Assembly: GCA_019753105.1 (NCBI GenBank)
Contig: JAIELJ010000004.1
Location: 1 to 64,000, forward strand
DNA from: Hyphomonadaceae bacterium
GTDB lineage: Bacteria; Pseudomonadota; Alphaproteobacteria; Caulobacterales; Aquidulcibacteraceae
DNA length: 64,000 nt
Reading direction: 5' to 3'
Below are positions 40,223 to 64,000 of this stretch, in pieces. How positions within the stretch are numbered: the first letter of the stretch is position 1; each line of letters opens with the position of its first letter. Below the pieces are notes generated by a model. The model saw nothing but the letters and a program-made list of their open reading frames with translations. It made no database searches and was not told the DNA's origin. The position numbers and the translations under genes are program-made.

Positions 40223-40312
40223 GGACAGGTGGCCGAGTGGTTGAAGGCGCACGCCTGGAACGCGTGTATAGGTGCAAGCCTATCGAGGGTTCGAATCCCT
40301 CTCTGTCCGCCA
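40223..40312 (+). tRNA. tRNA-Ser (anticodon GGA), probable attB site
   Basis: 90-nt tRNA with acceptor arms GGACAG/CTGTCC, encoded GCCA end, D-arm GTGGCCGAGTGGTTGAAGGC, anticodon stem CACGC/GCGTG around the loop CTGGAAC, a long variable arm (TATAGGTGCAAGCCTA) and the T-arm GAGGGTTCGAATCCCTC. It reads UCC/UCU codons. The integrase gene begins 160 bp after it, so its 3' half is the likely integration site of the element. Confidence 0.97.
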
Positions 40313-40472: not shown

Positions 40473-41696
40473 ATGCCTCTCACAGAGCCCGAACTTAGGT
40501 CCGCGAAACCTGCGGCGCGCGCCTACAAACTCTACGACTCCGAAGGTTTGTTCCTGTTGGTCACGCCAAGCGGCGGCAAGATTTGGCGTTACCGTTTCAA
40601 GCTGCACGGCAAGGAGAAACTGCTCTCGCTCGGCGCCTATCCGAAGGTGGGGCTGACTGCGGCGCGCAAAAAGCGCAACGCCGCAATCGAGAAGGTGCAG
40701 GAGGGCATCGACCCAGCTGCCGAGCGCGCTGCCGCCAAGCTTCAACGTAAGCTCGCGAAGGCGCACACCTTCAAAGCCGTGGCGCTGGAGTGGCATGCGC
40801 TGCATGCGCATGAGTGGACGCCCGCTTATGCCAAGCAGATCATGAACCGGCTCGAGGCAGATGTCTTTCCTTCGATCGGGAGTCTTGATGTCGCCGAGAT
40901 AAATCCAGCCAAAATGCTGGAGGTGTTGAAGGCAGTCGAAGCACGGGGCGTGCTCGAAACCAATCGGCGTCTCAAGCAGTACTGCTCGGCGATATTCAGA
41001 TACGGCATTGCAAGTCAGTATTGCGAGCATGATCCTGCCGCACCGCTGAAAGGCGCACTCAAATCGCCGCCGCGGCCTAAACACCACAAGGCGCTAGCCA
41101 CCAACGAGGTCGGAGACTTCCTCATCCGCTTGGCCGCTTACGATGGCGAAGAAGAAACGCGGATCGCAATCAATCTGGCGGTGCTAATGGCGCCCCGCAC
41201 TACTGAACTTCGCGCGGCACGCTGGTCAGAATTCGCGGATATTGAGAGCGAGGAGGGGCTTTGGCGCGTACCGGCAGAGCGGATGAAGATGAACACCGCG
41301 CATCTCGTACCTTTGTCGCGCCAGTCGCGAGAATTACTAGCGCGACTGAAGGAACTCACCGGCAAGAGCGCTTACTTGTTCCCCAGCAGCGCGCCAGAGG
41401 GCTTCATGTCCAACAATACCATGTTGTTTGCGCTCTACCGGATGGGGTTTCACGGCAGAACCACGACGCATGGCTTTCGTCGGCTTTTCTCGACGGAGGC
41501 CAATGAGCATGGATGGAACGAGGACTGGATCGAACGGCAACTTGCTCACGACGAACGGGACCGTGTTCGCGCCGCCTACAACGCCGCGCAATACCTACCG
41601 CAGCGCCGCGAGATGATGCAGTGGTGGGCGGATCGACTGGAGAATCTTAAAGGCAGTGAGCTAGAGCGCCGCAGAAAAGAAGCGCTCAAGACATAG
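40473..41696 (+). CDS. int: P4-type tyrosine recombinase / integrase
   Basis: 407 residues. The N-terminal DUF4102 arm-binding domain is LTEPELRSAKPAARAYKLYD followed by GLFLLVTPSGGKIWRYRF; a SAM-like core-binding domain spans about 100-195. Catalytic residues are Arg242 (APRTTELRAARW), a Lys in MKMNTAHLVP, His333 and Arg336 (HGFRR), His359 (LAHDERDRVRAAYN) and Tyr369. All are present, so it should be active. It drives integration at, and excision from, the adjacent tRNA-Ser. The upstream region holds iteron-like repeats. Confidence 0.94.
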   Translation: MPLTEPELRSAKPAARAYKLYDSEGLFLLVTPSGGKIWRYRFKLHGKEKLLSLGAYPKVGLTAARKKRNAAIEKVQEGIDPAAERAAAKLQRKLAKAHTFKAVALEWHALHAHEWTPAYAKQIMNRLEADVFPSIGSLDVAEINPAKMLEVLKAVEARGVLETNRRLKQYCSAIFRYGIASQYCEHDPAAPLKGALKSPPRPKHHKALATNEVGDFLIRLAAYDGEEETRIAINLAVLMAPRTTELRAARWSEFADIESEEGLWRVPAERMKMNTAHLVPLSRQSRELLARLKELTGKSAYLFPSSAPEGFMSNNTMLFALYRMGFHGRTTTHGFRRLFSTEANEHGWNEDWIERQLAHDERDRVRAAYNAAQYLPQRREMMQWWADRLENLKGSELERRRKEALKT

Positions 41697-42513: not shown

Positions 42514-43754
42514 TTGTCTTCCAATATTGTTGCGGCCCTAGTCGGGGTCGCGGGCGTCGTGGGCTTGTCCTGCGAGGCGGCTGCGCAAGCGCAAGAAGCG
42601 GTGCTAACGCGCGCCGATGCGCTCGCTCTCGCGCTGGCTGATGATCCGAGCATTGCTGCTGCGGATGCTGCGAGCCGCGCGGCCGATGCCGGGGCGCGGC
42701 AAGCTGGCCGTTGGAATAATCCGACGCTCGAAGTGCAGCGAGAGAACTTCGAAGGTTCTGGGCTCTACACTGGGTCGGAGCGGGCTGAGACGACATTCGG
42801 CCTAAGCCAGCCTTTGGAGCTCGGGGGTGACCTCGGCGCGCGACGTCGCTTAGCGCAGCGAGATCGAGACGTTGCGCGCATCGGCGCGGGGTTACAGCGG
42901 CTCGACATCATCGAAGAGGTTGAACACGCTTACATTGATGCGCAGGCGGCTGAGGCGGTGCGCGTACTCGCTGAAGAGCGTTTGGCTGTCGCGCGGGAGT
43001 TGGCCGAAGCGGTCGATCGTCGTGTGCGCGCTGCACGCGATCCGTTCATGGCGGGATCACGGTCGCAAGCCCGGCTGGCCGAGGCGGAAATCGAAGCGGA
43101 GAGCGCGCGTCGTGGCGCGATCAGCGCACGCCAGCGCTTGGCTAGCTACTGGCTCGGAGAGGGCAACTTTCAGGTTGATCTTGCTTCATTCGATCGGATG
43201 TCCGGCGATACTTCGGCACCAGGCGTCTCGCCCGACGTGGCATTGGCCGACGCCGAGACACAAAGAGCTGAGGCGCTGTTGCGGCTGGAGCAAGCGCGCT
43301 CGATCCCGAATGTCGATCTGCAGCTTGGATACCGCGAGTTTGAGGAGACCGACGAAAGCGCCCTCGTTGTCGGTTTCTCTGTTCCTCTCCAACTTTGGGA
43401 TCGCAATGCTGACGGCATCGCGCGCGCACGCGCCGATCGCGATCGCTTCGGTCATCGGCGTGAAGCGCGTGAGCGGGCTTTGGCGAGAGAGCGGGCGCTT
43501 TTGACCGATCAATTGGAGCGCGCACGACTCGAAGTCGCCGGGCTCGATGAGCGCGTCATTCCAAATAGCCAAGAAGCGCTCGACTTCGCGCGCGACGGCT
43601 ACGCGCGCGGGGCTTTTTCATACATCGACGTGCTGGAGGCGCAGCGTGCCCTTTCGGAAGCACGTCTGCGGCGCGTCATGGCGCTTCGTTCCTATCATCG
43701 CGCGCTTGCCTCGCTAGCGCGTCTGGCCGGCGTGCGCGCCGAGGAGATTTCACA

Positions 43755-43758
<4 letters not shown>
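42514..43758 (+). CDS. czcC: Outer-membrane factor of a heavy-metal efflux pump (CzcC/TolC type)
   Basis: 414 residues. The start is a TTG at 42514 with a strong AGGAGGG 6-12 bases upstream; no ATG lies nearby in frame. A signal peptide (IVAALVGVAGVVGLSCEAAA) precedes two OEP repeats of coiled coil (LTRADALALALADDPSIAAA; RVLAEERLAVARELAEAVD; EALDFARDGYARGAFSYIDV). It forms the outer-membrane duct of the tripartite pump. It overlaps czcB by 4 bp (ATGA). Confidence 0.88.
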
Positions 43759-48942
<5,184 letters not shown>

Positions 48943-48953
48943 GGACTGTGCCA

Positions 48954-49550
48954 ATGTACAACGCAGACTTGCCCACCCGCGCTGAATTGCCTTCGACGAA
49001 GCAATTGCTGCGCTCCACTCTGATCGCACTCGCCACCGCGACCGTCGCACTTGTGACGGCGGTGTTGCCTGCGGAATACGCGATCGATCCAACCGGCATC
49101 GGGCGCGTTCTTGGTCTGACCCAGATGGGCGAGATCAAGATGCAGCTTGCAGCGGAAGCAGCGCAGGATCGAGCCGGAGCCGAGACCGAGGCGCCGTTGA
49201 CCGAACCCGCCGACGCGCCGGTCGTCGTTGCGGATGCGCGTACGGACGAGATCAGCGTCACCTTGGCGCCGGGCGAGGGCGCGGAAGTGAAGCTGACCAT
49301 GCAGGAAGGCGCACGCACGCGCTATGAATGGAGCGTCGCGGGCGGCGTCGTGAATTATGATCTCCACGGCGACGGTCGTGGCAATTCAACCAGCTACCAG
49401 CAAGGGCGCGGCGTGCCTGGCCATAGCGGCGAACTGGAAGCGGCGTTCGATGGCAATCACGGTTGGTTCTGGCGCAACCGTGGCACTTCTGACGTGACCG
49501 TGACGCTTCGCGTTGTCGGCGCGCATACTGACATTCGCCGCGTGATCTAA
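48954..49550 (+). CDS. Single-pass membrane anchor protein of the metal operon
   Basis: 198 residues from the ATG at 48954, with AAGGA upstream. The N-terminus MYNADLPTRAELPSTKQLLR precedes one membrane helix (TLIALATATVALVTAVLPAE). The periplasmic part is Ala/Glu-rich, then a compact beta-domain (SVTLAPGEGAEVKLTMQEG, then GELEAAFDGNHGWFWRN). I recall such 'transmembrane anchor' proteins between HupE/UreJ-like genes in czc loci. It may link complex parts; function unproven. Confidence 0.7.
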   Translation: MYNADLPTRAELPSTKQLLRSTLIALATATVALVTAVLPAEYAIDPTGIGRVLGLTQMGEIKMQLAAEAAQDRAGAETEAPLTEPADAPVVVADARTDEISVTLAPGEGAEVKLTMQEGARTRYEWSVAGGVVNYDLHGDGRGNSTSYQQGRGVPGHSGELEAAFDGNHGWFWRNRGTSDVTVTLRVVGAHTDIRRVI

Positions 49551-49559
49551 GGTGAACCG

Positions 49560-50369
49560 ATGATGACCAAACGATTCCATCTCGCCATCGGTGCGTTCGT
49601 CGTTGCGCTGGCGACGCCCGCTCTCGCATGGGCTCATGGCGTGCCGAGTGCGGAGGCCGAACGCCTCGCCAACGGCAGCGTGCTCGACTACGCCGTCTCT
49701 GGCGCCATGCACATGGTCACCGGCTACGACCATTTGCTGTTCTTGTTCGGCGTGATGTTTTTCCTGACGCGGTTCTGGGACATCGTGAAGTTCATCACGG
49801 CGTTCACGATCGGTCATAGCATTACGCTTCTCGGCGCGACGTTCGCCGGCATTAGCGCGAACTATTATCTGATCGACGCCGTGATCGCGATTTCGGTGAT
49901 CTACAAGGGCTTCGATAACGTCGATGGATTCCGCAAAGGCTTTGGTATCGACCCACCGAACTTGTTGTTCATGGTGTTCGGTTTCGGTTTGATCCACGGC
50001 TTCGGTCTGTCGGCGCGGTTGCAACGGTTGCCGCTTCCGGAAGAGGGCCTGATTGAGCGGATTGTTGTGTTCAATGTAGGCGTCGAGCTTGGCCAGATCG
50101 CTGCGCTAATCGTCATGGTCGCAATCCTAGCCCTTCTGCGCCGAACAAAAGCGTTCGACGCCTTCTCCAAGATCGCCAACTATGGCCTCATTGCGGCTGG
50201 AGCGCTGTTGTTCCTCTTCCAAATGCATGGGTATTTGCATACGCGAAATCCCGATGAGTTTGGCTTCTCGGAAGACGCGCACTATCATGCGCATCAAGAG
50301 ATGGACGATGAGCTGGCGCGTCAACGCGAAGGACGCGACACGCTAATGCCAGCGGAGGATTTGCAATGA
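49560..50369 (+). CDS. HupE/UreJ family membrane protein 2
   Basis: 269 residues. A signal-like start (AIGAFVVALATPALAWAHG) is followed by about six helices with MVTGYDHLLFLFGVMFFLTR and FNVGVELGQIAALIVMVAIL, clearly homologous to the protein at 48196-48942. The C-terminus is His-rich (EDAHYHAHQEMDDEL), adding a likely metal-binding tail on one side of the membrane. Paralogue by duplication or separate acquisition. It overlaps the next gene by 4 bp. Confidence 0.85.
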   Translation: MMTKRFHLAIGAFVVALATPALAWAHGVPSAEAERLANGSVLDYAVSGAMHMVTGYDHLLFLFGVMFFLTRFWDIVKFITAFTIGHSITLLGATFAGISANYYLIDAVIAISVIYKGFDNVDGFRKGFGIDPPNLLFMVFGFGLIHGFGLSARLQRLPLPEEGLIERIVVFNVGVELGQIAALIVMVAILALLRRTKAFDAFSKIANYGLIAAGALLFLFQMHGYLHTRNPDEFGFSEDAHYHAHQEMDDELARQREGRDTLMPAEDLQ

Positions 50370-50710
50370 ACGGTATGAAGACGCTGCTTTTGGCGATCGC
50401 CTTGACGTTCTCCGTCGCGTCGCCCGCGCTCGCGCATCCAGACCACGACATGGTCGAGGAAGAGAACCCGCGCCTGCTCGCACTCAATAGCGCGAGCTAC
50501 GTTGTGGACCGCATGATCCAGCGCAACGCTATCCCGGCGAGTTGGGGAAGCATCGAGCCAACTTCGGCGTTTCTGCGTCAGCGCAACGGCGCGGATGAGT
50601 GGGTGGTGACGTTTCAAAACAGCGCCATCACCAATCCGGCCGAACGCACGCTCTATGTCATGCTGACCTATAGCGGCGTGTACATCGCAGCCAACTATAC
50701 CGGGCAATAG
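50366..50710 (+). CDS. Small periplasmic protein, DUF6488-like
   Basis: 114 residues. A signal peptide (TLLLAIALTFSVASPALAHP) is followed by a short domain (VVDRMIQRNAIPASWGSIEP, WVVTFQNSAITNPAERTLYV, LTYSGVYIAANYTG) that I believe belongs to DUF6488, a family seen beside heavy-metal efflux genes. The start is coupled (ATGA) to the second HupE/UreJ gene, so it is the last gene of the efflux operon. Confidence 0.65.
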   Translation: MNGMKTLLLAIALTFSVASPALAHPDHDMVEEENPRLLALNSASYVVDRMIQRNAIPASWGSIEPTSAFLRQRNGADEWVVTFQNSAITNPAERTLYVMLTYSGVYIAANYTGQ

Positions 50711-53557: not shown

Positions 53558-54763
53558 TTAGAGGCCGATCCCGAAGGGCAGGCGCAATTCCTTTGGTGCG
53601 GGCATGCGTGTTGGATTGGCGAGTGTGCGCGACACGTCTCGAGCGCGCGCCTGCATCAATGACTTTCGGATGTCGAGGTGGAGTTCCATCGCCTTGAGCG
53701 CGTCTTGCCAGCCTGGCTCGAAGCGAAGGACGTTGCGCCGAACCTCTTGCGCCAATCCCAAATTCTTCAGTTCGCGCAGGCGTGTCTTCAGCGCGTCGGT
53801 CATATCTGGCGAGCCGTTGGGTGCGCGAAGCTCGGCGAGACGAACTTGGCCTCTCTCATCGAGCTGGCCGGTAATCAGCTTATCAAGCCGTGTCGGCGCA
53901 TGCGCCAGCGCCTCGCGCTGCAGCGCCTCGCGTTCATCGTCGCGCGTTCGCTGTCCCAATCGATCCGTCGCCGCGTCGCGGGCGGCATTGCGAAAGCCGT
54001 GTTGGACGAACTCCCTGGGAATGACGAGGTCGCGCCCGTCCTCGCGCACGCCGCGCAGAACAATATGCGAGTGCGGGTTGTCGGTATCGAAGTGATCAAC
54101 CGCAAACCATTCGAGCTTGGTGCCGAGCGCCGTCTCGGCGCGCGCCATCACGTCGCGCGTGTAGGTCTTGAGGTCGCCGAGGCGGCCGCCATTCTCGGCC
54201 GACAGGATGATCCGAAAATGGCGTTTGTCAGACTGCGCCCAATGCTCGGCGAGGCGTGCGCCGCTCACGCTATCGCGCGCGGCGTCATAGAACACCCAAT
54301 GCTCCTGGCGCGGCGGTTGGCGGCGGTCGCTTTCATCCCGCGCCTGGGCGCCGTCTCGTTCCGTCTCAGCTCGTGAGAGCCAGACCTCCTCGGCCTTTGC
54401 GGCGGAGTCACGAGCGATGTAGCGCGCGTGAGCTTTGAGCGCTGCGCCGCCGCCCTTGGCGTGACCAAAGTAATGCAGCTTCACCACCGCTCTTTGACGC
54501 GCGTCGAACGCAAAGGGGGTACGTGGCGCGCGCTTGCGCGCAAACGCCCTCGCCAGCGCACGAGAAGAGCCGATCCGCTTCTGCAGCCGCGATGACAAGC
54601 CATCGCTACCCGCACGGCCGCGCGCACCGCCCTCGTGACGGCCAATGAGACTCTCTGCATCAAGCGGACGGCTGATGCGCAAGCGGGATCCGGGTGTAAT
54701 CACTTCTTCGCCCGGCGTACCACGAAGCAGCTTGCTGGTGCGGAACGTCGGAGGCTGCGACAT
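53558..54763 (-). CDS. MOB relaxase, VirD2/RlxS-like, short form
   Basis: 401 residues from the ATG at 54763; an in-frame start at 54862 would read through upstream repeats. The relaxase core has HFRIILSAENGGRLGDLKTY and the metal motif VDHFDTDNPHSHIVLRG (HxD...HxH). A winged-helix-like segment (LRELKNLGLAQEVRRNVLRF) follows, and the protein ends soon after. Related proteins usually run to 600-700 residues with a DUF3363 region, which I do not see here. It would nick oriT and pilot DNA. Upstream repeats at 54780-54810 may be part of oriT or the promoter. Confidence 0.82.
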   Translation of the reverse strand: MSQPPTFRTSKLLRGTPGEEVITPGSRLRISRPLDAESLIGRHEGGARGRAGSDGLSSRLQKRIGSSRALARAFARKRAPRTPFAFDARQRAVVKLHYFGHAKGGGAALKAHARYIARDSAAKAEEVWLSRAETERDGAQARDESDRRQPPRQEHWVFYDAARDSVSGARLAEHWAQSDKRHFRIILSAENGGRLGDLKTYTRDVMARAETALGTKLEWFAVDHFDTDNPHSHIVLRGVREDGRDLVIPREFVQHGFRNAARDAATDRLGQRTRDDEREALQREALAHAPTRLDKLITGQLDERGQVRLAELRAPNGSPDMTDALKTRLRELKNLGLAQEVRRNVLRFEPGWQDALKAMELHLDIRKSLMQARARDVSRTLANPTRMPAPKELRLPFGIGL

Positions 54764-55274: not shown

Positions 55275-55781
55275 TCAAAGCCGCCGCCATACGCCCTCGA
55301 TTGTCTGGACATCGATCGGTCCCCAATAGCGCCCGTCGAAGGAGTCCGCCGTGTCGCCTAGGATCAAAACCTCGTCGGGACCAAGGACCCGGCACGCCTG
55401 CCAAGCCGGCAGCGCAGCACCGGTGCTGTCATACGCGCGGCGCTCATAGGAGACGCCGCCATTGAGGGTCACCTCATCGCCGCGCGCGCAGACATGGTCG
55501 CCCGCCAACGCTGCGACGCGCTTGATGAACCTGTCGCGCGGACCGTTGAAGCCGCGGGCCGCCGCCGCCGCCGGGGCGACATCAATGGCGCGCACCGTAA
55601 CAAACGAGCCGCGTTCGAGTGGCTCATCTGTCCGGAGATAGAATCCGACCGGCACCGAGGGCGTGTGATTGTAAAGGACGCGATCCTCGGCGGCTGGCAG
55701 GGCCAGCACAGCCAAGGCGACGAGCGCCGCTGCGCTCAGGACGGCAAGTATCGGCCATCGGCGTTGCACGCGCGCGAGCAT
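55275..55781 (-). CDS. traF: TraF-like S26-family signal peptidase
   Basis: 168 residues from the ATG at 55781. One membrane helix near residues 10-28 (LAVLSAAALVALAVLALPA) precedes the catalytic domain. The nucleophile is expected in NHTPSVPVGFYLRTDEP (Ser of SVPVG), the general base Lys in RDRFIKRVAAL, and the final box reads VLILGDTADSFDGRYWGPID. In conjugative elements, TraF matures the pilin. It lies upstream of the small protein and relaxase genes on the minus strand. Confidence 0.85.
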   Translation of the reverse strand: MLARVQRRWPILAVLSAAALVALAVLALPAAEDRVLYNHTPSVPVGFYLRTDEPLERGSFVTVRAIDVAPAAAAARGFNGPRDRFIKRVAALAGDHVCARGDEVTLNGGVSYERRAYDSTGAALPAWQACRVLGPDEVLILGDTADSFDGRYWGPIDVQTIEGVWRRL

Positions 55782-56217
55782 GTGGTTCGCGGACAGGGGC
55801 GCCAACTGGATGCACGCGAGCGGCGTGCCCGCCAAGCTGACTTCAGATCTTGACGGCAATCACGACGCCAGGTCGTCCTCGCAATAGAGAAAGTCTTGGC
55901 TTCGCGCTGCACCGGGGCCGGGGCACGCTTTGGCGGCAGCGATAGCGCTGATCTCTTCCAGAATGCGGCGACGGGTTCATGCCAGCTTTCGGGGCGCGAT
56001 CGTGGTTAGGGCGATTACGTCCTGGCCTCGTTTGCCAGACCAACGTCGGCTCCCGCCTCCGCCCGGTCCACTTCGGGAATTTCGCCCCCTGTGCTGCCGG
56101 CAGTGATCTTCACGCTCTTACCCCGATGCTTCGTTTGCTGTGGTTCGGTTCCAAAGCTAAGCGGTAAGCACGTCGCTCTGCAATTCGAGCCAAGGTCTTG
56201 CGATGCGCGGAGCGAAT
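55782..56217. other. 436-bp gap without a recognisable gene
   Basis: Between the traF-like and vapC genes, both on the minus strand, no frame has a convincing family or a good start. The minus strand holds an open stretch from about 56043 to 55843 that is Arg/Pro-rich and resembles no protein I know. It may include a decayed transfer gene and the traF promoter. Confidence 0.4.
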
Positions 56218-58036: not shown

Positions 58037-58921
58037 CTAACGGGCTTCGGCGCGCGCCCAATCGTTCCAATCTGGATAGCCGCCGGGCGGCAGAGCCACT
58101 TCGCAAACGATAGAAGCTTCCACGCGCGCGCGTAGACGCGCTGCCGCTGCAAGACCTGCTTCATCATTGTCAGCGGCGATGATGAGCCGGTCGATGACGG
58201 GCGGCGGCCCAAACTGCGCGAGGTTTTCCGCGCTAAGGAACGCCCAGGCGCCGGCGCCAAGCGCGCGTCTGGCTGAGAGCGCCGTCTCCAAGCCTTCAGC
58301 AACGATAAGCGTGTCGCCCGGCGCATCGATGCGCACATAAGCGCCCATCAAACGACCGATCGTGCGGCGCGGTGTTGCAAGCGCTGCTTTGGAGGCGCCG
58401 TGCGCGGTGAGAAGGGTGACTTGAATGCCTTGTAGGCGACCTTCTGGATCAACCAACGCCGCAACGAGAGCGGGCCGGCTTTTCCGATCTTCAAGGCTTG
58501 TCATGCGGGGATGAAACCGAAGTACGTCGGGCCCCGCCAGTTCGCCCTCGATGGCGCGCCTGCGCAGATAGCGCTCGGCGGTCGTGTTGGCGACCGGCTG
58601 ACTCTCACTCCAGAGTCTAAGCATGCGAGCGTGACGATCTTCATCGCCGCGCTCGGGCTTAAGCCGCACGCTCGGCTCGCTCGGTGGCGGCGTTTGCGCA
58701 TCGTCCTCGTCGAGCAGGCCCAGATCCGCGAACTCGTCGCGCACAGCGCGCCAATCATCGCGCGGGCTGAAGCAATGAATGAGCACGCGGCCGTCCTCGG
58801 TCTCAAGCAGCGAGACCGAGCGGTCGGCGGGCCCATGTCCCGGCCCGCGCACGAGGGCGCGGCGTCCGCCATCCAAGAGGACGCCGCCCATCGCATCGAC
58901 AATGCGCTTAAGCCGCGACAT
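58037..58921 (-). CDS. Toprim-domain primase-like protein
   Basis: 294 residues from the ATG at 58921, which lies inside the last codons of the ArdC gene (coupled start). The N-terminal part resembles the primase zinc-finger-less region of plasmid and ICE primases (GGVLLDGGRRALVRGPGHGP). A Toprim domain follows: LIVAEGLETALSARRALGAG (Glu) and LIIAADNDEAGLAAA (DxD-like). It is probably a primase or topoisomerase-like helper for element DNA processing. Common next to ArdC in alphaproteobacterial elements. Confidence 0.85.
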   Translation of the reverse strand: MSRLKRIVDAMGGVLLDGGRRALVRGPGHGPADRSVSLLETEDGRVLIHCFSPRDDWRAVRDEFADLGLLDEDDAQTPPPSEPSVRLKPERGDEDRHARMLRLWSESQPVANTTAERYLRRRAIEGELAGPDVLRFHPRMTSLEDRKSRPALVAALVDPEGRLQGIQVTLLTAHGASKAALATPRRTIGRLMGAYVRIDAPGDTLIVAEGLETALSARRALGAGAWAFLSAENLAQFGPPPVIDRLIIAADNDEAGLAAAARLRARVEASIVCEVALPPGGYPDWNDWARAEAR

Positions 58922-59810
58922 CGCTCGCTCCAAGCGGCGGGCTTTTGTCGAGCAGCCAATCGACCGCCAATTGCGCGTGCGCCGCGGCGTGGAAGAAGGC
59001 GCGCTTGTCGGATCGGAGAATAGACATCCAGTGTCCAATATAGGCGGCGTGATCGAAGATGTGATCGGGCGGCAGCCGAAGATGGGCGCCAAGGATGGCC
59101 GCGCCAATCTCGGCGACCAATTCTTCGGCCGCGACGGCTTGTTTGTCGAAGCGCTTCGAGAGGTCGCGTCCAACCCGATGCGGCGCTGCTGTTGCGTGCA
59201 CCGCTTCATGGTTCAAAGTGGCGGCGTAAGCTTCCGCACCATCGAATGCGCCGAGGGGCGGCATGGCGATGACATCACGGCTCGGGATGTAGCAGGCCGT
59301 GTCACGTGAGAGCGCGCGGGCGATCTCCAATTGGGCAAACCAGTCTTCGTGCGCCGCGATTGGCGCGATGGCGCCGTCCGCGGGACGTGGATGAAACGCC
59401 TCACTCAAACCTTCGATCTGGTCGGCGTTGAAAGCCACATAGGCTTTCAGGAAGCGGAATGTTTCATCGCCTGAGCCGGTCTCGTTCAGCGCCGCGCGAC
59501 GCTGGGCGACGCCGTAATAAACGACAAGTTCGCCGCGCTCTCCTTTGCGCACATGAGCGCCGAGTTTGGCGGCCTGTCTGTAAGTCAGCCAATAAGGCGA
59601 GGCGTATCCGTGCGCGGCGGAGGCGAGCCAGAGCATGATGGTGTTGACGCCTCGATAGCATTCGCCATTGGCGCGGCGGGGCAAGACGGGACCAGTGCGG
59701 GCGCCGTCCCAGGGCTTGCGCCATGGCATCACGCCTTGTTCGAGAGAAGCGAGGATGCGTGCGTTGATGTCTGCGGCGATGTCGCGCCGCGCGTGTGCGG
59801 AAGGCGTCAT
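58908..59810 (-). CDS. ardC: ArdC-like antirestriction / ssDNA-binding metalloprotein
   Basis: 300 residues. The N-terminal ssDNA-binding ArdC domain (DIAADINARILASLEQGVMP, then WRKPWDGARTGPVLPRRANG) is followed by a zincin-like domain with NHEAVHATAAPHRVGRDLSK (HExxH). Such proteins protect incoming single-stranded DNA against restriction. The leader has a GC hairpin and the ribosome-site stretch GAGACACCC also seen before the ssb-like gene. It overlaps the Toprim gene start by 14 bp. Confidence 0.9.
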   Translation of the reverse strand: MTPSAHARRDIAADINARILASLEQGVMPWRKPWDGARTGPVLPRRANGECYRGVNTIMLWLASAAHGYASPYWLTYRQAAKLGAHVRKGERGELVVYYGVAQRRAALNETGSGDETFRFLKAYVAFNADQIEGLSEAFHPRPADGAIAPIAAHEDWFAQLEIARALSRDTACYIPSRDVIAMPPLGAFDGAEAYAATLNHEAVHATAAPHRVGRDLSKRFDKQAVAAEELVAEIGAAILGAHLRLPPDHIFDHAAYIGHWMSILRSDKRAFFHAAAHAQLAVDWLLDKSPPLGASDVAA

Positions 59811-59892: not shown

Positions 59893-61779
59893 TCAGTGCT
59901 GCGCGGCGAGCGAGGCTTCGGCGGCGTTGGTCAGCGCGAGCGCGCCTGCGCCAAGCGGCGTCACCAGGCAATCGGGCAACCAGCGCGACCCAGCGAATGC
60001 CTTGGCCGCTGCGTCCGCGAACTCGCTCTTCTTCAGCTTGGCCAGCGCCTTCAGTTTGGCGCTCTTCTTGGCTTCCGGCAGATCGGCGAAATCTGAGCCT
60101 TCGGCCAAAGCGTCGAGCGCGTATTGCTTCGACGTGCGCTGCCAGAAGGCGCTGTCGGGCGTCCAATGCGCGCTCATGTCGAGCCGGATTGCGGCGGCGA
60201 TCATGTCGGCGGAGCGCTGACGTTCGCGGTCCTGAGCGCTTACGCCCTCGTGGTGGAGATCGATGGTTTCGGCGACAAGGATCGCGAGGCACGAGAGCAG
60301 CGTCTCGTCATCGAGAGCCAACGCCTCGGCAAACGTCTCGGGGAAGGCGCGCGCGGCGCGCAACGTCGCAAAGAATTCGTCGTCGCCGAAGTCACGTGCT
60401 GTAGCGTTGATTGCGGGACCCACCAGATTCCCTGAACTCACGCTCTGCTGCGCCAGCGTGCACACCAAGAGCGCCAGCGCCACGTGGACGTCGTTTGCGA
60501 CGCCCGCCCGTATGGCGCGGGTGCGCGCAAGCGTGAGATCGCGCGTCAACGCCTTGCTCAGTGACGCACCGCCGGGGGCGCCTGCGTCTTCGTCGTCTTC
60601 GCTGCTGTCCCCGGGAGCCTTCGCCGTGTTACGCAGTTTATCGAGCGCCTTCAAATCCGCGCGGCGAATGAGCCCGCGCTGGATCGTGGGCTTGCCGTCA
60701 CGAGCGACGCTGACAATGGCGCCGGCGTGCGCCATCAAAGCGGGATCGTAAATGCGCGCGGCTTCGACGAGGGCGGCGCGTTCGCCATCGAGCGTCTCGC
60801 GCTTGTCCCACAGAGCGTCAGCGTCCGGGCCGTGCTCCATGCCTTCGAGTTCGCTATCGATACGCTCGATCTCGGCATCGACCGCATTGAGGTGTCGCTT
60901 TTCTTTGGGCGTAAGTTTGCGCTCGCCGGGGCGGAGGCGCTCGGCAGCGAGGCCTTCGATGTGGCCGCCCGCTAGATTGATTTCGGCCCAGCCCCAACCA
61001 TCCGTCAGAAGCGCGTCGCGGAGTGTCTCCAGCTTCTCTAGAGCGAGACGCTGCAGGATTTCGCCTTCCTCAAGGAAGGCGATGGTTTCCTCGAACAGAT
61101 CCTTGACGATGCGCCCGCCAGCGGCCGTGTAGGCGTCAACGCCGACGAAGAGCGCGAGACGATCGTTGAGTGGGGTGCGGCCTTGGGTGAGGGCGCTCCG
61201 AACAGCGTGAGCGCTGGTGATCGGCTTGGCCAATCCCTTGAAGACACGCTCCTGCGCCGCGTGATCGCCGATGCAGAAGGCGCGCGCGACATCGAGCGTG
61301 AGTTCGCCGCGCCGGTAAGCGGCGCGAATGCGCGGGCTTAAGTGCGCCAGCGCCAGGCGTTGTTCGACATGGCGGAGTGTCGTACCGAACCGTTGCGCGA
61401 CACCTTCCGGCGACTGGCCCGCCGCGACAAGCGCTGCGAATGCTTCCATCTCGTCCATGGCGTTCATCTCAACGCGTTGGACGTTTTCGGCGAGTGAAGC
61501 CTCGGCCGCGGCCGCTGATTCAACAATCTGACAGGGTGTTGGCCAGTCCTTGCCGCGTTCGCCTTGGCGAACGAGAAGCTTGAGCGCGGCGTGGCGACGC
61601 GCGCCGGCGACGACCGCGAACTTGCCGTCTTCGCGCGCGGTGACCGTTAGATTTTGCAGAAGACCGTGGGCGGCGATGGATGCGGCAAGCGCGTCGATAT
61701 CGCGTTTGCGCTCGGTGCGGCGGACATTGTCGTCGCTCTCGACGAGTTTGTTGAGCGGTATGAGTTGAAGTGCGGACAT
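59893..61779 (-). CDS. parB: Large ParB/Spo0J-family protein
   Basis: 628 residues, about twice a classical ParB. The N-terminal ParB domain reads LIPLNKLVESDDNVRRTERK, FAVVAGARRHAALKLLVRQG and AAEASLAENVQRVEMNAMDE. A helix-turn-helix follows (EGVAQRFGTTLRHVEQRLAL, then AHLSPRIRAAYRRGELTL). The remaining 400 residues are helical with no domain I recognise. Such large ParB-like proteins are found on alphaproteobacterial plasmids and ICEs, where they may act in partitioning or regulation. Divergent from luxR; no parA is seen in the window. Confidence 0.85.
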   Translation of the reverse strand: MSALQLIPLNKLVESDDNVRRTERKRDIDALAASIAAHGLLQNLTVTAREDGKFAVVAGARRHAALKLLVRQGERGKDWPTPCQIVESAAAAEASLAENVQRVEMNAMDEMEAFAALVAAGQSPEGVAQRFGTTLRHVEQRLALAHLSPRIRAAYRRGELTLDVARAFCIGDHAAQERVFKGLAKPITSAHAVRSALTQGRTPLNDRLALFVGVDAYTAAGGRIVKDLFEETIAFLEEGEILQRLALEKLETLRDALLTDGWGWAEINLAGGHIEGLAAERLRPGERKLTPKEKRHLNAVDAEIERIDSELEGMEHGPDADALWDKRETLDGERAALVEAARIYDPALMAHAGAIVSVARDGKPTIQRGLIRRADLKALDKLRNTAKAPGDSSEDDEDAGAPGGASLSKALTRDLTLARTRAIRAGVANDVHVALALLVCTLAQQSVSSGNLVGPAINATARDFGDDEFFATLRAARAFPETFAEALALDDETLLSCLAILVAETIDLHHEGVSAQDRERQRSADMIAAAIRLDMSAHWTPDSAFWQRTSKQYALDALAEGSDFADLPEAKKSAKLKALAKLKKSEFADAAAKAFAGSRWLPDCLVTPLGAGALALTNAAEASLAAQH

Positions 61780-62070: not shown

Positions 62071-62808
62071 ATGCCTGCCGGCCAGGTCGCGCTCGACTTC
62101 ATCGATTTCTGCGAGAAGCAGACCGATCTCTTGGCGATAGAAAATCGCTTCGTTGCAACGCTCAATGCCCTTGGCTTCGAGCACATCGCCTGCGCGTCGC
62201 ACGTCGATCCGCTGCGGCCGCGCCCCGGCGCGGTCAGCATCGTCAATTATCCGATGGCGTGGCTGCAGCAATATTCAGCTGAGAATTTCGCATACATCGA
62301 TCCGGTATTTCTCGCCGCGCGCATCATGACCGCGCCTTTCAATTGGGATGAGTGCCTCTCCAAGATGCGCCTCGACCGCGCACAGAAGCGCGTGTTGGCC
62401 GAGGGCGCCGCTTATGGATTAACTGGCGGCATAACCATCCCGCTCCGCTCACCCGATGTCATCCCCGCATCGTGTTCGTTGGTCGCTGGCGCTGACGGCG
62501 TAGAGCCGCTCGATATGGCGCACACTTTGATGGTCGTCGTCTATGGACATGGCGCCATGCATAGACGGCTCAATCCGAATGCCTTGGTTGATCCGGTCGT
62601 GCTGCCTTCACGCGAGCGCCAGTGTCTGGCGCTTGCCGGGCAGGGCAAAAGCGACTGGGCGATAGGCGAACTGCTGGGCATCAACGCCCGCACCGCCCAC
62701 AATTCTATTGAGCGCGCCAAGAAGCGTTATGGCGTGTCGCACCGCGTACAAGCGGTCGTGCGCGCCGTGTTCGATGGCCAGATCATGCTCGACGATTTGT
62801 CGAACTAA
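62071..62808 (+). CDS. luxR: LuxR-family quorum-sensing regulator
   Basis: 245 residues from the ATG at 62071, with GGGAGGAC upstream; longer readings add Arg-rich non-family residues. The N-terminal autoinducer-binding domain shows WLQQYSAENFAYIDPVF and the acidic and aromatic pocket positions typical of TraR/LuxR. The C-terminal helix-turn-helix is LPSRERQCLALAGQGKSDWA then IGELLGINARTAHNSIERAK. It is followed by luxI, so it is the partner receptor, probably controlling transfer of the element. Confidence 0.92.
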   Translation: MPAGQVALDFIDFCEKQTDLLAIENRFVATLNALGFEHIACASHVDPLRPRPGAVSIVNYPMAWLQQYSAENFAYIDPVFLAARIMTAPFNWDECLSKMRLDRAQKRVLAEGAAYGLTGGITIPLRSPDVIPASCSLVAGADGVEPLDMAHTLMVVVYGHGAMHRRLNPNALVDPVVLPSRERQCLALAGQGKSDWAIGELLGINARTAHNSIERAKKRYGVSHRVQAVVRAVFDGQIMLDDLSN

Positions 62809-62830
62809 ATCGATTCGTCGCTTGTCAATG

Positions 62831-62844
62831 GGTCCCACGGGACC
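62831..62844. promoter_or_regulatory. Candidate LuxR binding site upstream of luxI
   Basis: Inverted repeat GGTCCC-AC-GGGACC (perfect 6-bp arms, partly extended by flanking bases), 55 bp upstream of the luxI start and 23 bp after the luxR stop. Position and size suit a lux-box-like operator, although it does not match the classical lux box. Confidence 0.5.
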
Positions 62845-62898
62845 TGTTACGCCATGCGCTCCAGAGCGGCACCCTCCGCGCAATTGCTCGGAGGCAAC

Positions 62899-63528
62899 AT
62901 GATCTACATCGTCACAGCGGAAAACCGGCGGCGCTTCTATCACTTGCTGACGGAGATGCATCGCCAGCGCAAACAAGTGTTCATCGATCAGCTGAAGTGG
63001 CGGCTCGAGGAGAGCGCAGGGCTGGAGATCGACGCCTATGACAGCGAAGATGCAATCTATCTCATTGAGGCGGCGACGCCACGAGGAGGGATCAGCGTCT
63101 CCGCGCGCCTCTTGCCGACAAATCGTCCGCACTTGCTGAGCGATCAATTCCGCGACCTGTGCGGTGCGGGGCCGCCATCAGGTCCCAATGTGTGGGAAGC
63201 AACTCGGTTTTGCCCCGCACCCGATACGGCATCTGGCGCGCCGCGGCGGATGCTGCTGGGACGCATCATCGCCGGCATCATGGAGACTGCGCTCCTCTTT
63301 GGCATTGATGAGGTGACGTACGTAGCGAGCGCCGCGTTGGCGCCGATGGCCAAAGCAGCGGGATGGCAGGTGCGCGCGCTAGGGGCGGGGCGCGGAAAGG
63401 GCCGCGACAAGATCCAAGCCTTCGCCGCGACGATTGACGCCGATGGGCTGAGACGCGTGCGAGCCAACTTCGATATCAGCGCGCCATTGACACGGTTTGC
63501 GCCGGCCGAGGCGGCGCGTGCGGCTTGA
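62899..63528 (+). CDS. luxI: Acyl-homoserine-lactone synthase
   Basis: 209 residues from the ATG at 62899, with CGGAGG 5-10 bases upstream. Conserved LuxI positions are visible: Arg/Phe/Trp in HRQRKQVFIDQLKW, Asp pair in EIDAYDSEDAIYL, Arg in SVSARLLPT, and Glu/Arg in VWEATRFCP. It makes AHL signals from S-adenosylmethionine and an acyl carrier; the chain cannot be predicted. It follows luxR in the same direction and is followed 16 bp later by a phytanoyl-CoA-dioxygenase-like gene. Confidence 0.93.
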   Translation: MIYIVTAENRRRFYHLLTEMHRQRKQVFIDQLKWRLEESAGLEIDAYDSEDAIYLIEAATPRGGISVSARLLPTNRPHLLSDQFRDLCGAGPPSGPNVWEATRFCPAPDTASGAPRRMLLGRIIAGIMETALLFGIDEVTYVASAALAPMAKAAGWQVRALGAGRGKGRDKIQAFAATIDADGLRRVRANFDISAPLTRFAPAEAARAA

Positions 63529-63544
63529 AATTGTGAAAAGCGTC

Positions 63545-64000
63545 ATGACTCTCATCTCAGCCAATTCCGACGATACGCTCACCGGCGATCTCGACGCCCT
63601 GCACCGCGATGGATTTCTCATTCTCGACGGTTTACTGAACGCGGAGGACCTCCGATCGCTGGCTGACGAGCTTGAGCCTTGGCTTCTGCGCACGCCGCGT
63701 TGCGAAGGCGACTTCCATGGCTGGTCGACAACGCGCGTCAATGGACTTTTGTCCAAGGCGCCGTTGGCGCAGCAACTCGCGCTGCATCCGCGCATCCTTG
63801 CGCTTGCAGAAGCAGCGCTCGCGCCGGCGTGTGATTGCATTCGCCTCAACATGACCCAGGCAATTCGCATTCATCCTGGTCAAAAGGCGCAAGCGCCGCA
63901 CCGCGATGAGGAGATGTGGCCCGCCGATCCGAACGGGCAGGTTTGGTCACTCAATGTGATGTGGGCGATCAGCGATTTTACCGAGGCCAACGGCGCAACG
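63545..64000 (+). CDS. PhyH-family Fe(II)/2-oxoglutarate dioxygenase, 3' end cut off
   Basis: The first 152 codons are present. The start is the ATG at 63545 (a GTG at 63533 is in frame). The N-terminus DGFLILDGLLNAEDLRSLAD is typical of phytanoyl-CoA dioxygenase-like enzymes, and the iron motif HxD occurs in APHRDEEMWPADPNG, followed by WSLNVMWAISDFTEANGAT. It lies 16 bp after luxI, so it is probably co-transcribed. It may hydroxylate an acyl chain, possibly of the AHL signal or its precursor; this is a guess. Confidence 0.75.
   Translation, partial: MTLISANSDDTLTGDLDALHRDGFLILDGLLNAEDLRSLADELEPWLLRTPRCEGDFHGWSTTRVNGLLSKAPLAQQLALHPRILALAEAALAPACDCIRLNMTQAIRIHPGQKAQAPHRDEEMWPADPNGQVWSLNVMWAISDFTEANGAT

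What the first reader, a model, noticed from the sequence alone, without database searches (positions are those of the whole stretch)
62071..64000. LuxR-LuxI followed at once by a PhyH-type dioxygenase on a mobile element
The dioxygenase gene starts 16 bp after luxI in the same direction, so it is probably under the same control. A 2-oxoglutarate oxygenase co-expressed with an AHL synthase could hydroxylate or otherwise tailor the signal or its acyl precursor, giving the element a private signal. The layout is seen; the role is inferred.
Basis: partly seen in the sequence, partly recalled or inferred. Interest (0 to 1): 0.7.

Follow-up and report, generated by a model that had tools for sequence, protein, structure and literature searches.

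The report
Quorum-sensing head on a lasso-peptide cluster
A signal gene, its receptor gene and an oxygenase gene travel together between bacteria on mobile DNA as one unit; here they stand at the head of genes for a knotted peptide, and the oxygenase most likely alters the signal itself.

Summary
The layout is confirmed: luxR 62071-62808, luxI 62899-63528, then a PhyH dioxygenase starting 16 bp later and running past the window end to contig position 64420. The unit luxR-luxI-phyH is already in print for sphingomonads (PMC3704786, PMC4288048, PMC5012321), its reaction unknown. New here: (1) behind it, outside the window, lies an isopeptidase-type lasso-peptide cluster, and the genome holds three luxR-luxI-phyH-gntR-lasso cassettes; (2) luxI-linked PhyHs form one clade (62 sequences, support 99/92), 59 of them beside luxI or a luxI remnant; (3) the cargo changes (lasso genes, type IV secretion, DUF2285, P2-like phage, nothing) while phyH stays; (4) PhyH distances track LuxI and LuxR (r about 0.9) better than the lasso cyclase (0.58); (5) of 47 lasso-B2 loci in 387 alphaproteobacterial genomes 4 have a PhyH neighbour, each with luxI. 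So PhyH belongs to the signal side rather than the peptide. Two loci keep a receptor gene and phyH without luxI, and published data show 3-OH-AHLs do not need PhyH; both favour action on the finished AHL. Tailoring versus inactivation is undecided; no product was measured. No structure was obtained: the service was busy at all 20 tries.

The parts
62071..62808 (+). luxR, autoinducer-binding regulator (245 aa)
   Evidence: Autoind_bind E 2.8e-24, GerE E 9.8e-9
62827..62848 (.). lux-box-like palindrome AATGGGTCCCACGGGACCTGTT, centre about 61 bp before the luxI ATG; weak in this copy
   Evidence: Read by eye; sites of this kind at this place in 23 of 55 relatives, including the near relative L009, but in the window copy the scan ranked another palindrome (15 bp before luxI) higher
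62899..63528 (+). luxI, AHL synthase (209 aa)
   Evidence: Autoind_synth E 1.4e-25; R24, F28, W34, D45, D48, R70, E100, R103 invariant in 36 sequences
63545..64000 (+). phyH, Fe(II)/2-oxoglutarate dioxygenase; 291 aa, continues to contig position 64420 beyond the window
   Evidence: PhyH E 2.1e-27; H119, D121, H191, R202 invariant in 43 sequences. Beyond the window (G000:C6): gntR 64422-65045, lasso precursors 65139-65258 and 65292-65423, lasso B 65475-66104, lasso C 66111-67877, isopeptidase 69880-67853 (-), TonB receptor 72837-69874 (-), FecR 80095-79124 (-), ECF sigma 80618-80061 (-)
59893..61779 (-). ParB-like protein, divergent from luxR
   Evidence: ParB_N E 3.6e-8
58908..59810 (-). ArdC-type anti-restriction protein
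   Evidence: ArdcN E 2e-34, MPTase-PolyVal E 2.9e-38
58037..58921 (-). Toprim-domain protein
   Evidence: Toprim_3 E 3.3e-17, DUF7146 E 9.5e-27
55275..55835 (-). S26 signal peptidase (TraF-like by position; inference)
   Evidence: Peptidase_S26 E 1e-21
53558..54763 (-). possible relaxase, below Pfam cut-off
   Evidence: Relaxase E 5.4e-5, 23.9 bits (cut-off 24.6)
40473..41696 (+). tyrosine integrase beside tRNA-Ser, probable near end of the element
   Evidence: Phage_integrase E 3.2e-16, Arm-DNA-bind_3 E 3e-23; tRNA-Ser 40223-40312

Best explanation
luxR-luxI-phyH is a portable quorum-sensing head. LuxI makes an AHL; PhyH, an intact Fe(II)/2-oxoglutarate oxygenase translated from the same message, oxidises the finished AHL; LuxR answers to the product and drives its own operon. 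The head is joined to exchangeable cargo of mobile elements. Here the cargo is gntR plus an isopeptidase-type lasso-peptide cluster (two precursors, B, C on the same strand; then AtxE2-family isopeptidase and TonB receptor on the other), so the lasso peptide is most likely made at quorum. Shown: gene order, conservation, one PhyH clade, co-divergence with LuxI and LuxR, exchange of cargo, conserved metal and co-substrate residues. Inferred: control of the lasso genes by LuxR, the AHL as PhyH's substrate, and that the change makes the signal private to the element.
For: 42 of 45 PhyH relatives have luxI adjacent; the three others are one contig end (L047) and two receptor-phyH loci (L049, L051). 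Own family, 60 genomes: 41 of 54 luxI loci have phyH 14-225 bp downstream (between matched stretches), and 25 of those 41 have lasso B within 3 kb. One PhyH clade of 62 (99/92): 59 luxI-linked (one of them a luxI remnant behind an IS21), 2 without luxI but with a receptor gene, 1 cut by a contig end; 20 fetched outgroup PhyHs, none beside a luxI, fall outside. Class sample: 5 of 5 PhyH loci over 370 bits are beside luxI; of 93 weaker ones 1 is. Mantel r (none of 500 permutations as high): phyH-luxI 0.90, phyH-luxR 0.885, luxI-luxR 0.83; in the lasso subset phyH-luxI 0.885, phyH-luxR 0.916, phyH-lasC 0.58, luxI-lasC 0.62. Cargo differs: lasso, virB (58), DUF2285 (61, 62), P2-like phage genes (123), none (L055, L057). 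43 of 47 lasso B2 loci in 387 genomes have no PhyH neighbour at E 1e-8, and the 4 that do all have luxI. Palindrome before luxI in 23 of 55 against a shuffled mean of 0.95, maximum 5; also before phyH in luxI-less L049. Nearest solved sequences are AndA (E 4e-32), DhiD, TlxJ and SwnH1, recalled as small-molecule oxygenases, not phytanoyl-CoA dioxygenase 2a1x (E 0.0025).
Against: No AHL from any of these loci was measured. In G409 (L129) a luxI inside the main LuxI clade stands without phyH. The six divergent pairs L057-L062 are one group in the PhyH tree, but their LuxIs fall among phyH-free LuxIs, so the pair is not inseparable. In PP1Y Lpl and pMC4 the lasso biosynthesis genes lie on the strand opposite to the head, so there they are not in its operon. 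Mantel tests compare genes that share genomes, and lasso C evolves faster (mean distance 1.67), which by itself lowers its r; LuxI tracks lasso C no worse than PhyH does. The lux-box-like site in the window copy is weak. The receptors of L049 and L051 match the autoinducer domain but not the GerE DNA-binding domain. PhyH tracks LuxR as well as LuxI, which does not choose between tailoring and inactivation.
Confidence: 0.5

Rival explanations
1. PhyH oxidatively inactivates or clears the AHL: a built-in timer or quencher expressed with the synthase, giving a pulse of signal.
For: Same linkage data. Receptor-phyH loci without luxI (L049, L051) would make sense as a receiver that removes others' signal. 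Co-divergence with LuxR (r 0.885-0.93) fits either reading.
Against: A quencher need not be the most conserved partner of one LuxI lineage (mean distance 0.88 for PhyH against 1.22 LuxI and 1.41 LuxR). Novosphingobium Rr2-17, one of five strains of a group with phyH beside novI in four of five pairs, is described as accumulating copious AHL (PMC11674143, abstract); whether that strain itself has phyH was not checked.
Confidence: 0.2
2. PhyH hydroxylates the lasso precursor or peptide, like CanE on canucin.
For: phyH lies on the same strand, with one gene (gntR) between it and the precursors; an Fe/2OG lasso hydroxylase is known (CanE, described in PMC9266682, passages).
Against: 43 of 47 lasso B2 loci in the class sample have no PhyH neighbour (a few lie near contig ends), and the 4 that do have luxI. 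Many luxI-phyH units have no lasso genes (16 of 41 in the family, some cut by contig ends). phyH-lasC r 0.58. Cores differ widely. L063 has a lasso cluster without luxI or phyH.
Confidence: 0.1
3. PhyH hydroxylates the acyl-CoA or acyl-ACP before LuxI uses it.
For: Family name and the textbook reaction of phytanoyl-CoA dioxygenase on acyl-CoA; the nearest solved LuxI sequences include a 4-coumaroyl-HSL synthase (6wn0) and 5w8a (BjaI by recall), recalled to use aryl- or acyl-CoA.
Against: NovI alone in E. coli gives C8 and 3-OH-C8, -C10, -C12, -C14-HSL (PMC11674143, passages). Phytanoyl-CoA dioxygenase is only a distant match (E 0.0025). phyH persists without luxI in L049 and L051.
Confidence: 0.1
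4. PhyH is a quorum-controlled output enzyme with an unrelated substrate that was joined to the unit once and has been carried along.
For: One origin of the pairing fits a single join; short gaps alone do not prove a shared pathway.
Against: Retention across three proteobacterial classes, through exchange of the cargo and where luxR (L057, L062) or luxI (L049, L051) is missing, with 52 invariant columns in 43 sequences.
Confidence: 0.1

Closest known systems
luxR-luxI-phyH synteny of Sphingomonadaceae (novR-novI-phyH; [quoted passage not shown]
   Same: Same order and strand; LuxI with R24/F28/W34; PhyH next to LuxI; a GntR gene behind phyH in one copy (PMC3704786, PMC4288048, PMC5012321, passages). 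pRSMS1 shows topology T.
   Different: Here outside Sphingomonadaceae, with a lasso cluster behind; the passages seen give no reaction for the bacterial enzyme, and PMC4288048 contains the words lasso, gntR and TonB 0 times.
Isopeptidase-containing lasso-peptide clusters (astexin, benenodin, sphingopyxin type)
   Same: GntR before the precursors, B, C, AtxE2-family isopeptidase (566 bits, cut-off 400), TonB receptor, FecR/sigma nearby: the architecture described as almost constant in PMC9266682 (passages).
   Different: Headed by luxR-luxI-phyH; that review has 'quorum' 0 and 'phytanoyl' 0 times. FecR/sigma lie about 6 kb beyond the TonB gene.
Quorum-sensing control of conjugative elements (TraR/TraI of Ti plasmids, recalled; ICEMlSymR7A with DUF2285 proteins)
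   Same: An element's own AHL system next to transfer or excision genes; two plasmids have DUF2285 right behind phyH, and DUF2285 proteins control transfer of ICEMlSymR7A (PMC10359603, abstract and passages).
   Different: An oxygenase between luxI and the cargo; that paper holds phyH, phytanoyl and luxI 0 times.
CanE, Fe/2OG lasso-peptide hydroxylase
   Same: Fe/2OG oxygenase in a lasso cluster (PMC9266682, passages).
   Different: PhyH here follows luxI, not lasso genes. The CanE sequence was not compared.

Membership tests
luxR-luxI-phyH unit | luxR, luxI, phyH contiguous on one strand | tested here: met
   three copies in the genome
luxR-luxI-phyH unit | PhyH falls in the luxI-linked clade | tested here: met
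   L005, L006, L007 inside the clade of 62 (99/92)
LuxI AHL synthases | Autoind_synth domain with the canonical invariant residues | tested here: met
   (E 1.4e-25); invariants R24 F28 W34 D45 D48 R70 E100 R103 (that these are the canonical set is partly recalled; R24, F28, W34 are named in PMC3704786)
LuxI AHL synthases | Makes an AHL | not testable with these tools
   needs expression and LC-MS
PhyH Fe(II)/2-oxoglutarate oxygenases | HxD...H facial triad and 2OG-binding Arg | tested here: met
   H119, D121, H191, R202 invariant in 43 (their roles assigned from recall of the family)
PhyH Fe(II)/2-oxoglutarate oxygenases | Acts on phytanoyl-CoA | not testable with these tools
   sequence is far from the solved phytanoyl-CoA dioxygenase (E 0.0025)
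Isopeptidase-type lasso-peptide cluster | B protein (lasso B2 model) | tested here: met
   72.9, 74.5 and 60.8 bits for the three copies, cut-off 33
Isopeptidase-type lasso-peptide cluster | Lasso cyclase (C) | tested here: inconclusive
   Asn_synthase E 2.2e-19; NF033561 macrolactam cyclase E 9e-35 but 120 bits against a cut-off of 300
Isopeptidase-type lasso-peptide cluster | Precursor with T at -2, G1 and an Asp/Glu at 7-9 | tested here: met
   six precursors in three pairs. The benenodin model matched five of the six, all below its cut-off of 33 bits (30.9, 29.0, 27.3, 22.2, and 16.8 for window A1, scanned without its first Met); window A2 was not matched
Isopeptidase-type lasso-peptide cluster | AtxE2-family isopeptidase | tested here: met
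   566 bits, cut-off 400 (window copy; not tested for the two other copies)
CanE-type lasso hydroxylase | Oxygenase follows lasso genes | tested here: not met
Integrative and conjugative element | Integrase, relaxase, type IV secretion and two attachment sites | tested here: inconclusive
   integrase at tRNA-Ser met; relaxase below cut-off; type IV secretion genes not searched for in the window element; no second att within 101 kb

The most novel reading that the evidence does not exclude
PhyH is a dedicated AHL-tailoring oxygenase: it turns a common AHL into an oxidised signal that only the co-travelling LuxR reads, so plasmids, integrative elements and P2-like phages each hold a private channel, which they use to time transfer or the release of a lasso peptide. 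I recall no dedicated tailoring enzyme in AHL quorum sensing; no literature search was made for that point alone.
Probability: 0.4. Interest if true: 0.86.

Novelty: new variant of a known kind. Interest (0 to 1): 0.63.

Why it matters
The luxI-phyH pairing has been reported since at least 2013 with its reaction unknown. The comparative data narrow the question to one cheap experiment: co-express luxI and phyH and measure the AHLs. They also join two fields: isopeptidase-type lasso peptides have no settled function, and here they stand behind a quorum-sensing head on mobile DNA, which suggests that they serve the element at high density. A phage contig with the same head widens this to phages.

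Tried and rejected
Lasso tailoring by PhyH was the first idea once the lasso genes appeared; it was lowered by the class sample and by lasso-free units. A far attachment site was sought by exact (14 bases or more) and fuzzy (up to 4 mismatches) match of the tRNA-Ser 3' end and not found. A search of viral contigs with the LuxI alignment found nothing, although L132 holds a luxI, so that search is insensitive. Structure prediction of PhyH, meant to show whether the clade-specific residues (D97, N102, V138, S208, R246, N248, D272) line the pocket, never ran: the machine was busy at all 20 tries.

Rows dropped and hand labels: one search left out L001-L004, L008, L010, L024, L047, L053 (short, duplicate or partial). 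One search skipped L082 and L027 and counted L040 as luxI-less because of overlapping open frames, although one search shows luxI beside it; I labelled L040 and the remnant L078 as luxI-linked by hand and removed identical sequences. One search skipped L082, L068, L071 and gaps under 40 bp; its 55 gaps still include near-copies. Scored candidates per genome were capped (8, 10, 6), so those counts are lower bounds. The 20 unlinked LuxIs were picked from the best-scoring ones, and the 20 outgroup PhyHs likewise.
Full report
CHECK OF THE OBSERVATION. luxR is 62071-62808, luxI 62899-63528, and the dioxygenase starts at 63545, 16 bp after the luxI stop, all on +. The window ends inside the dioxygenase; the genome (G000, 3.87 Mb, 20 contigs; the window is contig C6:1-64000) gives its end at 64420. 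Pfam names are Autoind_bind/GerE, Autoind_synth and PhyH. The Fe-ligand and 2OG residues H119, D121, H191 and R202 are invariant in 43 sequences (roles assigned from recall of the family).

WHAT LIES BEHIND IT. Directly after phyH come a GntR regulator, two small precursor genes, a lasso B protein and an asparagine-synthetase-like cyclase, and on the other strand an isopeptidase and a TonB receptor. The B protein exceeds the NCBIfam lasso_biosyn_B2 cut-off (72.9 against 33 bits) and the peptidase the AtxE2-isopeptidase cut-off (566 against 400); the cyclase model is reached only below its cut-off. The precursors carry the leader motif LGAATExTxG or close variants; by the usual rule (Thr at -2, Gly1, acidic residue at 7-9; recalled, the penultimate Thr also in the start of the abstract of PMC10368454) the window cores would be GIYDPIRKENFVDPEARDLQ and GVWDPLLKETHETPESFPM, ring G1-E9. 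The benenodin model matched five of the six precursors of this genome, all below its cut-off, and not window A2. The same genome has two further copies of luxR-luxI-phyH-gntR-A-A-B-C: L006 on C2, with two luxR genes and with VirD4- and VirB11-type genes beside it, and L007 on C14, beside a ParB gene and an ArdC-like gene (the latter by eye). A review of lasso modifications describes the GntR-precursor-isopeptidase-TonB-sigma/anti-sigma order as almost constant for isopeptidase clusters and holds the words quorum and phytanoyl 0 times (PMC9266682, passages).

WHAT IS CONSTANT AND WHAT CHANGES. A pattern scan of species genomes with the PhyH alignment alone gave 45 loci; 42 have luxI adjacent and 24 have lasso B and/or C downstream. 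In the window genome's family (60 genomes) 41 of 54 luxI loci have phyH 14-225 bp downstream (between matched stretches) and 25 of the 41 have lasso B within 3 kb. Of 13 luxI loci without phyH one ends its contig (G435:C100). Several of the 16 lasso-free pairs are cut by contig ends, but L055 (luxR-luxI-phyH between a pump and fab-type genes), L056 (near mobile-type genes) and L057 (luxI-phyH, no luxR found, among cys- and katG-type genes) are not cut downstream (neighbours named by eye). On named plasmids the same head precedes virB1-B2-B3-B4 (Sphingobium pRSMS1); gntR, sigma, FecR, TonB and a lasso cluster whose C, B and precursor genes lie on the opposite strand (Novosphingobium PP1Y Lpl, between TraG and trb genes, with AtxE2 isopeptidase, lasso B2 and benenodin peptide named in the record; Sphingopyxis pMC4, beside ParB, with lasso B2 named); DUF2285 regulators (Sphingobium YC-XJ3, Variovorax PBS-H4); and no lasso gene within 6 kb (Novosphingobium P6W). 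I looked at 7 of 69 plasmid records: 6 had the full head and the seventh (Methylocystis) a luxI remnant behind an IS21. An IMG/VR contig (L132) has luxR-luxI-phyH between an integrase fragment and P2-type portal, terminase, scaffold and capsid genes; a second (L133) has the end of phyH beside what look like the same genes (by eye).

IS PHYH TIED TO THE SIGNAL OR TO THE PEPTIDE? Class sample, 387 alphaproteobacterial genomes. luxI occurs in 59 genomes; PhyH is beside luxI in 4 of them (G000, G003, G339, G076), of which G000 and G339 also have lasso B there. Lasso B2 occurs at 47 loci in 37 genomes; PhyH at E 1e-8 is beside 4 of the 47 (G000 three times, G339), each time with luxI. PhyH relatives at E 1e-50 or better occur at 98 loci in 55 genomes; the 5 above 370 bits are all beside luxI, and of the 93 others (268 bits or less) only G076 is. 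In a maximum-likelihood tree of 84 PhyHs, 62 form one clade (99/92) with 59 luxI-linked, two without luxI and one cut off; 20 unlinked relatives and L070 lie outside, and so does L066 (G076), a long branch beside luxI whose place is unsure. A LuxI tree gives a clade of 53 (98/93), 52 with phyH and one (G409) without, while the six divergent pairs L057-L062 and L066 sit among unlinked LuxIs: against perfect co-inheritance. Distance correlations: phyH-luxI 0.896 (56 loci), phyH-luxR 0.885 (51), luxI-luxR 0.828 (49); within the loci that also have lasso C, phyH-luxI 0.885, phyH-luxR 0.916, phyH-lasC 0.584, luxI-lasC 0.619, luxR-lasC 0.583; with gntR, phyH-gntR 0.811 and gntR-lasC 0.546. Lasso C is the fastest-evolving gene, which lowers its correlation in part. 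So luxR, luxI, phyH and to a lesser degree gntR move as a block over changing lasso genes.

WHERE IN THE SIGNAL PATHWAY? Two Sphingosinicella loci keep phyH right behind a gene with an autoinducer-binding domain, with no luxI in the locus (L049, L051); Pfam's GerE DNA-binding domain was not matched in either receptor. For Novosphingobium Rr2-17, NovI alone in E. coli gave C8 and 3-OH-C8, -C10, -C12 and -C14-HSL; in Rr2-17 itself nine AHLs were named, and with novI overexpressed two more, uncharacterised, active spots were seen (PMC11674143, passages and abstract). So the common 3-OH group does not need PhyH. The closest solved sequences are AndA, DhiD, TlxJ, SwnH1 and PrhA (E 4e-32 to 8e-29), recalled as oxygenases of small molecules, with phytanoyl-CoA dioxygenase far behind (E 0.0025). 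I therefore favour the finished AHL as substrate. Residues fixed in the linked sequences but rare outside (N102 in 64 of 64 against 2 of 20; also D97, V138, S208, R246, N248, D272) are candidates for the binding site; without a structure this is only a list.

CONTROL. In 23 of 55 luxR-luxI gaps (near-copies included) a palindrome with at least 8 of 10 pairs is centred 55-78 bp before luxI; shuffled gaps give a mean of 0.95 and at most 5 in 200 rounds. Examples are ATAGGCACGTCCGTGCCTAT and AATGGGCCGATCGGCCCATA; L049 has AACCCCCTGATCAGCGGGTC before phyH. In the window the matching site is 62827-62848, but the scan there preferred another palindrome, so it is weak. That one message runs from luxI into the lasso genes is inferred from strand and short gaps.

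WHAT IS KNOWN. [quoted passage not shown] These cite Hao et al. 2010, which is not held and was not read. Searches for lasso peptide with luxI (8 papers), with phytanoyl (26, 2 papers), with quorum sensing and AHLs (54, 20 listed of 604), with isopeptidase and quorum sensing (94, 2 papers) and with conjugative plasmids in sphingomonads (113, 4 papers) listed no title or abstract start that joins a lasso cluster to luxI or phyH; only listings were seen. Searches for luxI or AHLs with phytanoyl-CoA dioxygenase or phyH listed the sphingomonad papers above and others that I did not open. The library lacks most subscription journals, so the lasso link may be in print elsewhere.

VERDICT.

Noticed in passing
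L132 5375-7807 (IMGVR_UViG_3300026078_000632); L133 1-477: luxR-luxI-phyH inside a P2-type phage contig, between an integrase fragment and portal/terminase/capsid genes; a second contig has the phyH end next to similar genes.
   Followed up: partly
L049 9089-10840; L051 9091-10819: Sphingosinicella loci with an autoinducer-binding gene directly followed by phyH and no luxI; the receptors lack a Pfam GerE match, and L049 has a FecR gene behind.
   Followed up: partly
L075, L076 (plasmids of Sphingobium YC-XJ3 and Variovorax PBS-H4): luxR-luxI-phyH followed at once by DUF2285 and HTH genes, the regulator type that controls transfer of ICEMlSymR7A.
   Followed up: no
   Followed up: no
L131 6511-9430 (MT835580.1, 'Bacteriophage sp.', unverified): A record labelled phage holds luxR-luxI-phyH-gntR and the start of a lasso B gene; perhaps a plasmid or integrative element, mislabelled.
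   Followed up: partly
L129 5813-6037; L056 8525-8716; L058 5322-5513: Small proteins of 63-74 aa follow luxI or luxI-phyH in lasso-free loci; they look alike by eye; two of them have no Pfam match.
   Followed up: no
window 42559-50710: Efflux genes (outer-membrane factor, AcrB-family pump; the rest by eye) between the integrase and the transfer-type genes, as further cargo of the element.
   Followed up: no
L063 8295-16728 (G421:C7): Lasso cluster with what look like isopeptidase, TonB receptor and FecR genes but no luxI or phyH, in a genome that also has QS-headed ones.
   Followed up: partly
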